A DNA stretch of 64,000 nucleotides from Bradyrhizobium barranii subsp. barranii (GTDB lineage: Bacteria; Pseudomonadota; Alphaproteobacteria; Rhizobiales; Xanthobacteraceae). Numbering within the stretch: the stretch's first letter is position 1; each line of letters opens with the position of its first letter. Below the pieces are notes generated by a model, which was not told the origin of the DNA, made no database searches, and worked only from the letters and a program-made list of their open reading frames with translations. Below are positions 54,752 to 64,000 of the stretch, one piece after another. Location: contig NZ_CP086136.1 of NCBI RefSeq assembly GCF_017565645.3, forward strand, positions 6,307,501-6,371,500. Reading direction: 5' to 3'. The position numbers and the translations under genes were made by a program.

Positions 54752-54920
54752 GACGCGCCGCGTTGCGTTCAAGGCACGAGCGGCTCCTGAATTGTCGCGC
54801 CCGCCACGCGCATAGAAGACTACGTGACACCTAGTCGTTCCATGTCAACGATGGGCCAGGAGCTGCAATTTGAGAATGGCACCGCACCGCCAAATCTATT
54901 GGGCGACGCCCATCTGATAC

Positions 54921-55289
54921 CTAGAATGTAAGACCACACCTAACGTGAAGATCGCCCCGGACGATCTGAATGATGACGTTCTGCGCCACGGGGACTGGGC
55001 CGTCTTTCGTAACCCATGTAAGCGTAACGCTATCGGGCCGATAACGGTTATCAAATGTCGGTTTACCGAACCGCTCAATATAGGCATTTCTGGTATCTTG
55101 GATGGCATTCGGGCCTGCCGCCCTCGGTTTCTTCACCTGATAGGCTTGGTCAAGGCCATCGACGTGAGTGCAGATGCCGCTCTCGGATATAGGGAGCGCC
55201 ATGATTTTGCTTGGCAGTAGCGCAAAAACAAGCGCGCATTTCAGATTACGAGTTATGACCACGAGAGCCAACCTGTTGATTCGATGCAT
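54921..55289 (-). CDS. Hypothetical secreted protein, low GC
   Basis: 122 residues with an N-terminal hydrophobic stretch (CALVFALLPSKIMALPISES) that could be a signal, then a charged domain (YQVKKPRAAGPNAIQDTRNAY; VTLTWVTKDGPVPVAQNV). Codon use is less GC-biased than the core genes, suggesting foreign origin. No strong ribosome binding site and no recognised family, so it is a tentative call. Confidence 0.5.
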   Translation of the reverse strand: MHRINRLALVVITRNLKCALVFALLPSKIMALPISESGICTHVDGLDQAYQVKKPRAAGPNAIQDTRNAYIERFGKPTFDNRYRPDSVTLTWVTKDGPVPVAQNVIIQIVRGDLHVRCGLTF

Positions 55290-55611
55290 TGAACTAAGAT
55301 CGACACGTCACGAGCTAGTCTAACAAGAATACTGCTCAATGTCCTTTATGGGTCACAAGCGGCGGTCGATGCCTGCACGAGACAGGTTCAATTTACCGGT
55401 GATAGCTGACGTGCGGAGAGCTCAGAGCGTCTTCGGGTCAGGGCCACAACCCGGCATCCTGCCCACCGATGAATTTCGGCGTTTCGGATAGGCCGAGGGA
55501 AACCGGAAAATTACCCGTCACGCTAGGCTTTTTGAACCGCCCGCGGTGTCAACAATACCAATTGTAATTATCGTGCATTGCAACTAGTGGAGAACACTAA
55601 GAGGTACGGGC
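55290..55611. other. Intergenic region, no recognisable gene
   Basis: About 320 bp, AT-richer than the core genome, between two accessory ORFs. I see nothing beyond the probable promoter of the downstream gene. Confidence 0.5.
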
Positions 55612-56163
55612 ATGAGCACTCAGTCAGGCAACGGTACTGACCTAAAATGGTCCTCCCCTGTGCTGGATCTCCTTCTCAAGTATGGGCCAGTCGCCGTAGT
55701 AGTTGTCGGCGCCGCTTGGGCCGCATTCACGTGGATTGCTCAAAGATCGGATCAAGCCGGGCGAGAAGAAACGCGACAAGCGGAGGCGGCGCGAGTCGCA
55801 ATTCGTGAATCTCAGAAGCCGTTTCTAGAGAAGCAATTGGCCTTTTATTTTGAGGCCGCGAAGGCGACAGCCGCGCTGTCTACAAGGGACCCGAAGGATC
55901 AAGAGTGGGCTTCGGCTCGCAAGAGATTTTGGGAGCTCTATTGGGGCGAACTAGGTGTGGTGGAAAGCCCGCAGATCGCCAGTGGTATGGTCGCCTTCGG
56001 GCAAACTCTAAGGGAGCTAGAAAAGTGTGTTGACGATGGTAAGACCTGCGACGGCTTGCAGAGACCACTTACCGGAGCCTCTTTAGCGCTAGCGCATAGC
56101 ATCCGGGAATCTATTGAAGCAGGCTGGGGCTATCGACTTGACGAGCTACCTGCCAAGAAATAG
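55612..56163 (+). CDS. Membrane-anchored hypothetical protein
   Basis: 183 residues: a single membrane helix (YGPVAVVVVGAAWAAFTWIA) after a short polar N-terminus, followed by a long charged helical region (SDQAGREETRQAEAARVAIR) and a soluble C-terminal domain with two Cys (EKCVDDGKTCDG). AGAGG lies before the ATG. Codon use differs from the core genes. The topology suits a cytoplasmic domain tethered to the inner membrane; function unknown. Confidence 0.75.
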   Translation: MSTQSGNGTDLKWSSPVLDLLLKYGPVAVVVVGAAWAAFTWIAQRSDQAGREETRQAEAARVAIRESQKPFLEKQLAFYFEAAKATAALSTRDPKDQEWASARKRFWELYWGELGVVESPQIASGMVAFGQTLRELEKCVDDGKTCDGLQRPLTGASLALAHSIRESIEAGWGYRLDELPAKK

Positions 56164-56365
56164 TTGGCGCACGAAAGCGTCTCGGCGCTTCCGGCCCCCA
56201 TCGGAGCGGATCACAACTCCAGAACCTGAACTCAGCAGCTTCCGGCCGAATGTCCGCTGAGGGGGCAAAGGCAGTCCCCGACCGAATCGACCCGGCAGGC
56301 CAGCTTTGGGCCATAAGCGGAAGTCGAAACGTGAAGCTTCAAGACGCGACGTCGGTCACCGAAAC

Positions 56366-57055
56366 TCAGTCGAAGACTGCCAAAGTCCTGTCATCGCGGA
56401 CCTCGAAGAACCGAGCCGCGATGACCTCACGCTCCGAGCCGCGGGCCTTTGTCGCCAGCATACAGGCGACATAGTCGGGACGTTTCGCATCCGACTGCGA
56501 CATCATCGATTCGACCCAGGATGCCGCTAGAATGCGGCACACTTTGCGGGAGAGCAGACGCACCCAGAAACTGGCGTCGACGCGCGCAAAGCCGACCAAC
56601 GCGGTATGCGGGCTCCGATCTGATTGCATCAGGCAAATCGAGCTCGTATCGACACGAAGGTCCGAAGCGTACAACGGAAACCCGAACTCAGGTGGTTTGG
56701 GGGAATGGCAGTGAGCCGGCCGCCATTCACGGTTGCCGAATTCAAGCGCCTCCGCCGGGGCCGTCTTCGCGAAGCTAGCCTTGACCTTGTCGACAGTCTT
56801 GTCCGGCTTAACAGGATCTTTTGGTTCGATCGAAAGCTCGAACGGAAAGCTCTCCACGTTCGACACCATGAACACGCCAAGAAAGCCGTAAACGGAAAAT
56901 CCAAAGGGACGTGTTTCGACAACCTTGTCTCCGACACGGGCCACCCATGTCAGCCCATGGGAAGACATCAACGCATATGTCGATGCATCCGGTCCATACT
57001 TGGCTTTGGCCGCGCGATTCCATTCGTCGATGTGTGAGAGGTCCGCCTTTTCCGA
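56366..57055 (-). pseudogene. C-terminal fragment of a gene split by the IS21 element
   Basis: 229 codons (SEKADLSHIDEWNRAAKAKY ... RFFEVRDDRTLAVFD). The only start inside the frame is a TTG formed by the IS end, so this is not a complete gene. The matching N-terminal part lies on the other side of the IS at 59541-59729. Removing the IS and one 8-bp target copy joins them in frame into a 292-residue protein. No domain recognised. Confidence 0.85.
57048..57055. repeat. Target-site duplication, left copy
   Basis: TTTTCCGA, identical to 59533-59540, directly abutting the TGT end of the IS21 element. Confidence 0.92.
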
Positions 57056-57057
57056 TG

Positions 57058-57921
57058 TCAATCGGCGTTGGACTGGGACCCCCGATCGGCGTCCAAAGGG
57101 GACCCCTTTGATCGGCGAGTCTTGATGGTAGCGCTCGCGGCGTCGGAGCTGGCCGGGGTTGCGGAGACGGCGCGAGCGCGGGTTGTTTGATCGTCGTCGC
57201 GGCTTTTAAAGCGCCAGCTGTCGTTACCGGTCTCGACGATGTCGCAGTGATGAGTCAGCCGGTCGAGCAGCGCGGTCGTCATCTTGGCATCGCCGAACAC
57301 GCTCGGCCACTCGCCGAATGCCAGATTGGTGGTGACGAGGACGGAGGCGCGCTCATAAAGCCGGCTGACGAGGTGGAAGAGAAGCTGACCGCCGGACTGG
57401 GCAAAGGGCAAATATCCGAGCTCGTCCAGGACAATGAAGTCCATGCGGGTTAGGTGCTCGGCAAGCCGGCCCTGTCGCCCGTTGCGGGTCTCGGTCTCGA
57501 GGCGGTTGACGAGGTCGACCACGTTATAGAAGCGGCCACGGGCGCCGGATCGGATGCAGCTTCGCGCGATAGCGATGGCCAGATGGGTCTTGCCGGTGCC
57601 CGTTCCACCGACCAGGACGACGTTGCGTTGCTGGGCGATGAAGCCGCCGCCGGCGAGATCATTGACAAGCGTCTGGTTGATCGGCGTGGCGTCGAACTGG
57701 AAGTCTGCGATGTCCTTTGCAAGCGGCAACTTGGCGATGGTGAGCTGGTATTTGATCGAGCGGGCCTGCTTCTCGTTGATCTCGGCGGAGAGCAGATCGC
57801 CGACGATGCGCTGGGGTTCGTGCTGGCGTTTGACGGCGGTCGCCATGATCTCGTCGAAGGCGGCCTTCATGCCGTAGAGCTTAAGCTCGCCCATGAGATC
57901 GAAGATTTGGGTTCGTTCCAT
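57058..57921 (-). CDS. istB: IS21-family helper ATPase IstB
   Basis: 287-residue AAA+ ATPase that assists IstA in target DNA handling. Walker [19 protein letters not shown], Walker [13 protein letters not shown] and sensor-type [18 protein letters not shown] are intact. Its last ~20 codons and TGA stop are encoded by the IS terminal repeats. The ATG at 57921 overlaps the istA stop (TGATG), implying coupled translation. Confidence 0.95.
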
Positions 57922-59438
57922 CAGTTTGTCCTCCGGAGGTTGTCGTAGCGGGCACAATCGGCGATCGGCGCATGGCGAAGCGTCAAGGCGGCCGGCGTCA
58001 TGATGTTGGCCGGTGGGGCAGGTTCACGTTGACGAGCCAGGATGTTGAGCACGACATCGGCGGAATGAACGCCATGAGCGACCGCCTCGGCGCAGGCGGC
58101 TTCCACCGCGGGCAATCCGTCTGTCAGCACCGCATTGAGGATATCGACCATCTGTCGATTGCCATCGTCGGCACCGGCGAGTTTGCGCCGTACACGCTCA
58201 ATCGCTGCGGGCAGCACCCAGTCCTTGAAGGGAGCGCCATTACGCAAGGCACCGGGCTTGCGCACAAGCACGGGCACATAGTGCCAAGGGTCGTAGACCG
58301 TCTCGCCGCGACCGAATGATCGCGGATGTTCGGCAACGACCCGGCCGTCCTGGCGGATCACGATGCGGTCCGCATAAGCCTGGACCTCAATGGGCCGCCC
58401 GACCGCGCTTGCCGCAACCGAGTACTTGTTGTTGTCGAAGCGCACCAGGCAGGTCTTGGAGACCGAGGCCGGGACGGCATGGAAGCCATCGAACCGACCT
58501 GCATAAGGCACGAGATTGGGTCGCTCGGCCTCGAAGATCTCCCAGACAGTCCGGTCGGCGAACTCTGGATGCCGATGCGCCTTGGCGTAGGCGATACATT
58601 TATCGAGCAACCAGGCGTTCAGCTCGTCCAATGTCTTGAAGCGCAGTCGCGGGGTGAAAAAGCGTTCGCGGACCAACCCGACCTGGTTCTCGACCTGTCC
58701 CTTCTCCCAGCCCGACGCTGGCGTGCAGGCAACCGGATCGACCAGATAATGGCTACACATCTGCAGGAAGCGCTGATTGTAGAGGCGGCCTTTGCCGACA
58801 AAGATCGTCTCCACCGCCGTCTTCATGTTGTCGTAGATGCCGCGCCGGCAAGTCCCCTTGAACAGTGCGAACGCCCGGTCGTGGGCGTCAAACACCATCT
58901 CCTGCGTCTCGCGCGGATAGGCCCGAACAAACAGCATCCGACTGTGGCAAAGCCGGACATGCGCCGCCTTCACGACCACCGTGGTTCCGCTCAACAGGAC
59001 GACTTCGTGGCTCCAATCAAACTGGTAGGCTTCGCCGGGCGCAAAGCTCAACGGCACATAAGCTGAGGTCGTCGAGGCGCCACGCTCTCGGCTCCACCGC
59101 CGCGCATAGCGACGAACCGCGTCGTAGCCGCCGGCATATCCGAGGCCGCGAAGCTCTTCGAACAAGCGAATCAGCGTCAGCCGTTCGCGCGTCGTCTTGC
59201 TCTCGTTCGCCGCCAGCAACCGGTCAAGCTCGGCACTCCACGGGCCCATCTTCGGAAGCGGCTGCGTCTCTCGCTCGTACCGGAACTCCGTCGCCTCCGA
59301 GCGGATGACCTTGCGGACCACCTTGCGCGATACGCCAAGCTCCCGGCAGATCGCCTTGATCGGCTGACCATGAACAAAATAAGCGCGACGGATCTTCGCA
59401 ATCGTCTCCACCACCAGCATCCCAACCTCGGCTTCCAT
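57921..59438 (-). CDS. istA: IS21-family transposase IstA
   Basis: 505-residue DDE transposase. N-terminal HTH ([20 protein letters not shown]), integrase core with [10 protein letters not shown] (first Asp), [11 protein letters not shown] (second Asp) and [18 protein letters not shown] (Glu), and a C-terminal beta-domain. Length is normal and no frameshift is visible, so the element may be active. Starts at ATG 59438. Confidence 0.95.
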
Positions 59439-59532
59439 GACTTGATGGAAGCCACTGTGGACCCTTGTCCCGGGGTCCCGATTGGATGCCGATTACCCCG
59501 AATACGGGGTCCTTATTCCATGCCGAAACACA

Positions 59533-59540
59533 TTTTCCGA
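59533..59540. repeat. Target-site duplication, right copy
   Basis: TTTTCCGA, identical to 57048-57055. Confidence 0.92.
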
Positions 59541-59729
59541 TGTTGTAACATCGAAATAACCAGTCCGGCGCGAATGCGGGACAGGCCAATCCGTCACCAG
59601 GAGGGCAGCGGAGATTGCTGCCGCCCCGCAAAGCGCTGCCGCCACGATCACTTTCTTAAGCACCGGCGTCACCGATTGACTGAGCGACAAGACCATTGCG
59701 GCAGCTGAGATTCCCGCCGAACGTTGCAT
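59541..59729 (-). pseudogene. N-terminal fragment of the IS21-split gene
   Basis: 63 codons: MQRSAGISAAAMVLSLSQSV, a membrane helix (KKVIVAAALCGAAAISAALL) and VTDWPVPHSRRTGYFDVTT, after which the frame enters the target duplication and the IS. The start may be at 59729 (AAAGGGG just upstream) or at ATG 59696. In frame with the fragment at 56366-57055. Confidence 0.8.
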
Positions 59730-60163
59730 GCCCCTTTCGTTGATTGAATCCGTCAACCTAGGCAACCAAAGGTTAAGGTCCGGTATCTGCAGCATGTGAC
59801 GGTGCTGATGGCCGCTCTGGCTCACAAGCTGCCATCGCGAAGAACCAGCACGGCGTCCGCTGTAAGCTCCCAAGCTGAAGTTAGTGAGCACCGCCCCGCC
59901 TCCGCCGTCGGCAACACCGGCGCCGGCGGCCGCGACGGCCGGATCACCGTGAGCCAGATCCCGGAGATATTGAACGCATTTTAGAAGCTCTCAGCGAAGC
60001 AGGAATTTGGATTGAGGGAGAGTGAAACAGGTGACCCTGGCGATGTAGACAGTTGACCACGAACGGACATCCGGCACGCTTCCCAATCGCTCGGAAACGC
60101 GGTCATATGGCGTCCGGGGACACTTGGCGTTTTCGCGCGAGGGTGTCCGCCTGCACAGGGAGA
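59730..60163. other. Intergenic region, no recognisable gene
   Basis: About 430 bp between the split gene and the SDR gene. It must carry both promoters. Frames are short and lack start signals. Confidence 0.5.
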
Positions 60164-63230: not shown

Positions 63231-64000
63231 TCATGCGGCCATCACCATAGCTTGCGTGCCGAAGTAAGCCTCGTCGGGCGTGCGCCCGTCAAGGCTCGAG
63301 TGAGGGCGTCCCTGATTGTAGAAGGCCAGATACTTGGCAATTGACGCTCGCGCCTCGGACACGCTGTCGTAGGCGCGGAGATAAACTTCTTCGTATTTGA
63401 CCGTGCGCCAGAGCCGCTCGACAAACACGTTGTCGCGCCAGGCGCCCTTGCCGTCCATGCTGATGGCGATCTTCGCGTCCAGCAGCACATCGGTGAACTC
63501 GAGGCTGGTGAACTGGCTGCCCTGATCCGTGTTGAAAATCTCGGGCCTGCCGTGCTTCGCCAACGCCTCCTGGACCGCTTCGACGCAGAAGGCCGCCTCC
63601 ATTGTGATCGAGACGCGATGGGCCAGGACCCGTCGGCTGAACACATCGACGACCGCCGCGAGATAGACGAAGCCACGCCGCATCGGAATGTAGGTGATGT
63701 CCATTGCCCACGCATGGTCGGGCCGCTCGATCTTCAATCCGCGCAACAGGTACGGGTAGATCTTGTGACCCGGAGCCGGCTTGCTCGTGTTCGGGCGACG
63801 ATAGACCGCCTCGATCCGCATGCGCTTCATCAGCGTCGCGATGTGGCGGCGACCGGCGTATACGCCCTCCCGCCGCAGCAACGATCGCAGCATACGCGCT
63901 CCCGCGAAGGGATAATCGAGATGCAGCTCATCGAGCCGACGCATCAAGGCAAGGTCCTCGGCCGAAACTGGCCGAGGTTCATAGTAGACCGTGCTGCGAG
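63231..64000 (-). CDS. IS3-family transposase OrfB, partial at window edge
   Basis: At least 256 residues of a DDE integrase-core transposase: an HTH-like region (FAGARMLRSLLRREGVYAG), WAMDITYIPMRRGFVYLAAV (first Asp), IFNTDQGSQFTSLEF (second Asp) and WRDNVFVERLWRTVKYEEV (Glu), ending SLDGRTPDEAYFGTQ. The frame is open to the right edge, where upstream codons SRSTVYYEP continue it, so the start is outside the window. Confidence 0.93.
   Translation of the reverse strand, partial: RSTVYYEPRPVSAEDLALMRRLDELHLDYPFAGARMLRSLLRREGVYAGRRHIATLMKRMRIEAVYRRPNTSKPAPGHKIYPYLLRGLKIERPDHAWAMDITYIPMRRGFVYLAAVVDVFSRRVLAHRVSITMEAAFCVEAVQEALAKHGRPEIFNTDQGSQFTSLEFTDVLLDAKIAISMDGKGAWRDNVFVERLWRTVKYEEVYLRAYDSVSEARASIAKYLAFYNQGRPHSSLDGRTPDEAYFGTQAMVMAA

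What the first reader, a model, noticed from the sequence alone, without database searches (positions are those of the whole stretch)
56366..59729. A membrane-anchored gene cleanly split by an IS21 element, reconstructable in frame
The IS (57056-59532) has TGT-type ends and a perfect 8-bp duplication, TTTTCCGA. Deleting the IS and one copy joins the frame ...GYFDVTT (ending at 59541) to SEKADLSHIDEW... (from 57055) without a shift, giving a 292-residue protein with one N-terminal membrane helix. Annotated separately, both halves would look like unrelated hypothetical ORFs, one with a false TTG start made by the IS end.
Basis: seen in the sequence. Interest (0 to 1): 0.7.

Follow-up and report, generated by a model that had tools for sequence, protein, structure and literature searches.

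The report
Orphan membrane-protein gene broken by IS21
A jumping-DNA element of a common type has landed in and broken a rare, uncharacterised membrane-protein gene of a Bradyrhizobium soil bacterium; this looks like ordinary gene loss in a genome rich in such elements.

Summary
A 2,477-bp IS21-type element (57056-59532; istA, istB, paired 21-bp terminal repeats) sits inside one minus-strand reading frame, flanked by TTTTCCGA repeats. Intact relatives exist: Bradyrhizobium sp. Arg816 encodes a 273-residue protein across the junction, 90% identical to the C-terminal piece. The 13 long homologous loci found in 12 other genomes all cross the junction; none starts there.

Correction: the start is probably GTG 59672 (273 residues); ATG 59729 is not conserved. 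The gene is accessory: 11 of 265 genus genomes, own included, have it; the same-species genome lacks it and about 5.2 kb around it. No curated family matches. One N-terminal hydrophobic helix and four invariant cysteines suggest a membrane-anchored envelope protein; function unknown.

Side result: of 13 near-identical copies of the element in this genome only 3 have their own target duplication (8, 7 and 6 bp); over 28 testable copies of the subfamily, 6 do. The window copy is one of the few clean insertions. Verdict: real, correctly read, ordinary.

The parts
56366..57055 (-). C-terminal fragment of the interrupted gene (stop codon at 56366-56368); the ORF list adds a false TTG start at 57061 made of IS-end bases
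59533..59672 (-).
57048..57055 (.). target duplication TTTTCCGA, left copy
59533..59540 (.). target duplication TTTTCCGA, right copy
57056..59532 (-). IS21-family element, 2,477 bp, TGT...ACA ends; 10 further exact copies in the genome, and two more in pieces at 100% (rounded)
57921..59438 (-). istA, 505 aa transposase (NF033546, 295.6 bits, cut-off 160)
57058..57921 (-). istB, helper ATPase (NF038214, 268.5 bits, cut-off 200; PF01695)
57062..57082 (.). terminal repeat L1
57086..57106 (.). terminal repeat L2
59506..59526 (.). terminal repeat R1
59472..59492 (.). terminal repeat R2
54862..60054 (.). segment absent from the same-species genome G011; holds the broken gene, the IS and two small ORFs (54921-55289, 55612-56163)

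Best explanation
An IS21-family element that has multiplied in this lineage transposed into an accessory gene of a Bradyrhizobium strain, making an 8-bp target duplication and splitting a 273-codon frame at about codon 46. SHOWN: element, ends, duplication, intact homologues across the junction, purifying constraint between the C-terminal piece and Arg816, no second copy found in the own genome, absence of the locus in one same-species genome. INFERRED: the gene is inactivated, because the N-terminal piece keeps only the membrane helix and runs into the IS, while the C-terminal piece lacks helix and start, and no promoter-like site was found at the IS end. INFERRED: before insertion it made an inner-membrane-anchored periplasmic protein stabilised by cysteine pairs, dispensable for the strain.
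For: Duplication and IS ends; IstA/IstB pass curated cut-offs; terminal repeats L1/L2/R1/R2. Arg816 homologue contiguous through the site, blastn identity 90.6% and 86.7% on the two sides, meeting at one copy of the site. All 13 long homologous loci in 12 other genomes span the junction. C piece versus Arg816: 64 differences in 684 bases, 39 at third positions, NG86 dN 0.052, dS 0.279, ratio about 0.19. All 10 intact homologues in A1 have an N-terminal hydrophobic peak (KD19 2.00-2.98), and the window's N piece has 2.56. Four cysteine columns (160, 185, 217, 242 of Arg816) are invariant in all 11 rows. No promoter-like site at 56900-57300.
Against: No expression data: either fragment might still be made. 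Topology rests on hydropathy only. No curated family, PDB sequence or neighbourhood evidence supports any function, and the AlphaFold model is too poor to use (mean pLDDT 37). The IS end carries TTGACA reading outward, a possible -35 half-site, although no -10 partner was found. The constraint (dN/dS) covers the time before and after the insertion together and cannot date the loss.
Confidence: 0.93

Rival explanations
1. The two halves are unrelated ORFs that happen to flank an IS.
For: Mechanical ORF calls list them apart, the C part with its own TTG start.
Against: Arg816 and 12 further loci encode both halves in one frame; one search with the intact homologue hits both halves in the window genome about 2.3 kb apart.
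Confidence: 0.01
2. The insertion is a reversible switch: precise loss of the IS turns the gene back on (phase variation).
For: Both halves still have open frames and the flanking duplication is intact.
Against: An intact frame is expected for any recent insertion, and the near-identity of the 13 copies points to recency. Precise excision is not known to me for IS21 (recalled, not searched). The assembly holds only the interrupted allele; no read data are available.
Confidence: 0.03
3. The C-terminal fragment is still expressed from the IS, giving a soluble version of the protein.
For: TTGACA at the IS terminus and an in-frame TTG codon at 57061.
Against: No sigma-70-like promoter at 56900-57300. 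Ribosome-binding and secretion signals were not searched for.
Confidence: 0.05

Closest known systems
IS21 family insertion sequences (IS21, IS5376)
   Same: istA/istB pair, TG...CA ends, two terminal repeats at each end, target duplication (the family layout is from passages of PMC10122671)
   Different: PMC10122671 reports 5-bp repeats for IS5376 insertions in vitro (passage); here 8, 7 and 6 bp in one genome, and most copies have none
2,477-bp IS21-like elements on Bradyrhizobium plasmids (e.g. NZ_CP126016.1, NZ_CP066352.1), some annotated istB, IS21-like
   Same: identical length and ends, 88.6-88.7% identity in the 12 records listed
   Different: about 11% diverged; no ISfinder name could be assigned with these tools
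Uncharacterised 273-residue protein of Bradyrhizobium sp. Arg816 (NZ_JAPRAQ010000033.1)
   Same: 90% identical over the C-terminal piece; same junction region
   Different: intact, and in another gene neighbourhood: DNA similarity stops about 60 bases beyond the 3' end and about 160 bases beyond the 5' end of the gene

Membership tests
IS21 family | IstA transposase with curated-model score above cut-off | tested here: met
   NF033546 295.6 bits, cut-off 160
IS21 family | IstB helper ATPase next to istA | tested here: met
   NF038214 268.5 bits, cut-off 200; PF01695 254.8, cut-off 24.1
IS21 family | TG...CA ends with multiple terminal repeats at each end | tested here: met
   TGT...ACA; 21-bp L1, L2, R1, R2 found by pattern; the repeat finder at 18 nt or more did not list them
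IS21 family | short target duplication | tested here: met
   8 bp here; 7 and 6 bp at two other copies, in agreement with empty-site matches; absent at the other 10 of 13 copies
IS21 family | transposition through a tandem or circular intermediate (recalled) | not testable with these tools
   no tandem arrangement among the 13 copies
Family of the Arg816 273-residue protein | sequence homology across the junction | tested here: met
Family of the Arg816 273-residue protein | N-terminal hydrophobic helix plus four invariant cysteines | tested here: met
   in the window the helix and the four cysteines lie on different fragments
Any Pfam, NCBIfam, PHROGs or PADLOC family | score above cut-off or E at most 0.001 | tested here: not met
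   Pfam on both pieces and all 11 A1 rows (best E 0.24), NCBIfam on both pieces and the Arg816 protein, PHROGs and PADLOC on the C piece and the Arg816 protein

The most novel reading that the evidence does not exclude
This 2,477-bp IS21 subfamily makes target duplications of variable length (6 to 8 bp) and usually ends up at junctions without matching duplications because it moves or recombines in ways that rearrange replicons (dimer-mediated inversion, deletion or fusion, or recombination between identical copies). It would then be a main shuffler of IS-rich Bradyrhizobium genomes, and this clean gene disruption would be one of its less common outcomes. Basis: 6 of 28 testable copies have a duplication of 6 bp or more, and one off-diagonal 7-bp match between inverted copies 31 kb apart.
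Probability: 0.3. Interest if true: 0.35.

Novelty: new member of a known kind. Interest (0 to 1): 0.2.

Why it matters
It is a clear example of how accessory genes are lost in IS-rich Bradyrhizobium: two ORFs that would be annotated separately are one broken gene, and its intact relatives (13 loci here) form an uncharacterised envelope-protein candidate family with no curated model found. Annotation would gain a pseudogene and lose two false genes. The side result, that few copies of this IS have paired duplications, is a testable lead on how such genomes rearrange.

Tried and rejected
Function search: Pfam, NCBIfam, PHROGs, PADLOC and PDB-by-sequence gave nothing above thresholds (the only PDB match was E 1.7). 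AlphaFold on two sequences gave mean pLDDT 37, so no fold search was made. Viral contigs and plasmids gave no relative. ORFs around the homologues were listed for 12 regions with an intact homologue and one with a remnant. By eye, from the first 50 residues only, L049-L051 share neighbours, as do L053/L054 and L055/L056, and I saw none common to all; the neighbours were not searched against any library. In one search the automatic marking of family members failed (no hits flagged); I recognised them by sequence.

I considered that the missing duplications could come from misplaced IS ends; rejected because the 11 exact copies, and the ends of the two in pieces, share the same termini and diverge outside them. 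The 5-bp match between L013-left and L009-right is within chance (about 0.15 expected among 156 off-diagonal pairs). The 31-kb inversion suggested by L012/L011 was not tested in other genomes.

Papers: passages only of PMC8374602, PMC10122671 and PMC8692435; listings. PMC7190074 and PMC4524158 are not held. A wider set of IS21 duplication lengths (4, 5 or 8 bp) is recalled, not seen.

Full report
WHAT IS THERE. The window lies in a 10.69-Mb contig of an 11.4-Mb, four-contig genome. It is Bradyrhizobium-type: relatives are named Bradyrhizobium; the strain itself is not named. On the minus strand, a reading frame ending at 56366 is interrupted by a 2,477-bp element at 57056-59532 flanked by TTTTCCGA. 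The element encodes IstA (505 aa) and IstB and passes the NCBIfam cut-offs for both. Its ends are TGT...ACA, and each end carries two copies of a 21-bp repeat of the form TCGGCRT...GGACCCC, found by pattern; the repeat finder at 18 nt or more did not list them. Relatives with the same length lie on Bradyrhizobium plasmids (12 listed of 367 records with a match; 88.6-88.7% identity), which fixes the ends independently.

INTACT HOMOLOGUES. A genome-contig scan with the C-terminal piece returned one relative, Bradyrhizobium sp. Arg816. There one 273-codon frame (GTG start) runs through the site. Nucleotide similarity to the window runs from 56307 to 57059 (90.6%) and from 59533 to 59831 (86.7%), meeting at one copy of the target. 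With this protein, 11 of 265 genus genomes match, the window's own included. At family level, with the 11-row alignment, 6 of 296 match, own included, adding three loci in two genomes of one other genus. At order level 4 of 397 match, own included; the only new one is a marginal hit (E 8.6e-4) with stops inside. In all, 13 long homologous loci in 12 other genomes (Arg816-identical G221 among them) cover the junction at about residue 46; two of them, in G061 and G064, match only to residues 250 and 252 of 273. None begins at the junction. One further piece, in G024 (residues 154-222, 78%), looks like a decayed remnant. The groups were drawn from larger ones, so absence elsewhere is not proven.

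START AND LENGTH. GTG 59672 gives 273 codons, the length of the Arg816 protein. This corrects the stated 292.

WHAT THE PROTEIN WAS. All 10 intact homologues in the alignment have one N-terminal hydrophobic peak (KD19 2.00-2.98; maxima after residue 60 at most 1.25), and the window's N piece has 2.56. Cysteines 160, 185, 217 and 242 of the Arg816 protein are invariant in all 11 rows, including the window fragment. I infer a single-pass membrane-anchored protein with a periplasmic, disulfide-bearing domain. No library searched names it, no neighbour was seen to be common to the 12 regions listed (by eye), and the structure model failed. Between Arg816 and the window the C-terminal piece shows dN/dS about 0.19, so it was under constraint for most of that divergence.

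ACCESSORY STATUS AND CONSEQUENCE. The same-species genome G011 has no match to the protein. G011 aligns at 98.8% from window 60055 on and at 94% up to 54606, with a weak 78% piece to 54861; the roughly 5.2 kb between is missing there. A 61-bp repeat (77%) lies near both ends of that segment. The window genome has no convincing second copy (best other hit E 0.13). The insertion therefore most likely ended the gene's function in this strain, which lives without it; this step is inferred, not shown.

THE ELEMENT'S BURST. The genome holds 11 exact copies, one that crosses the start of contig C2 and one split by another insertion (both 100% rounded, in pieces). Two older relatives at 89% and 85% are also present and are not counted. 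In G011 the longest matches are two halves at 86-87% on C3; no full-length copy was listed (one search scored two candidates per genome, forty). The copies thus probably spread recently in this lineage. Of 13 copies, 3 have their own duplication: 8 bp (this one), 7 bp (L004) and 6 bp (L008). L012-left and L011-right share 7 bp and are inverted 31 kb apart, as an inversion would leave (about 0.01 expected among 156 pairs; noticed after the fact); the outer flanks of the same pair do not match each other, so a simple exchange between two complete insertions is not shown. In seven plasmid relatives (7 fetched of the 12 listed) 2 of 7 have a duplication of 6 bp or more. All ten full-length rows outside the own genome listed were fetched: two ended at contig ends, and 1 of the other 8 has one. 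Total 6 of 28; the flanks of each of the other 22 share at most 3 bases. Some of these genomes are drafts, so mis-joins at IS copies cannot be excluded.

COMPARISON WITH THE LITERATURE. Passages of PMC8374602 describe three Bradyrhizobium genomes of 9.0-10.7 Mb with 384-622 predicted IS and 434-726 pseudogenes. Passages of PMC8692435 show deletions by recombination between directly repeated IS copies. Passages of PMC10122671 give 5-bp repeats for IS5376 and a role of IstB in correct duplications. Gene disruption by an IS is thus a known kind of event; the broken gene and this element are new instances of it.

VERDICT. It is ordinary biology. The uncharacterised four-cysteine family and the shortage of paired duplications are modest leads.

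Noticed in passing
13 IS copies, loci L003-L013 plus L015/L019 and L017/L018: Only 3 of 13 copies have their own target duplication, of 8, 7 and 6 bp; 6 of 28 over the wider subfamily.
   Followed up: partly
L011 and L012 (G000:C1:1072490-1074966 and 1038892-1041368): Inverted copies of which one left flank and one right flank share GCCACGT, as expected if the 31 kb between them was inverted; the other two flanks do not match.
   Followed up: partly
window 54862-60054: About 5.2 kb missing in the same-species genome G011, with a 61-bp, 77% repeat near both ends.
   Followed up: partly
L028 / L057 (G024:C1:6997197-6997409): Apparent decayed remnant of a close relative of the broken gene, 78% identical over 69 residues.
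   Followed up: no
L055 (G441:C349, 25012-25815 and 31066-31890): Two divergent family members about 5 kb apart in one genome of another genus.
   Followed up: no
L017/L018 (G000:C1:5546679-5551875): One IS21 copy is itself interrupted by about 2.7 kb, with element bases 1257-1266 present on both sides.
   Followed up: no
window 63231-63947: ORF of an IS3-family transposase (NF033516, 227.2 bits, cut-off 160) near the window end, matching model positions 136-368 of 369.
   Followed up: partly
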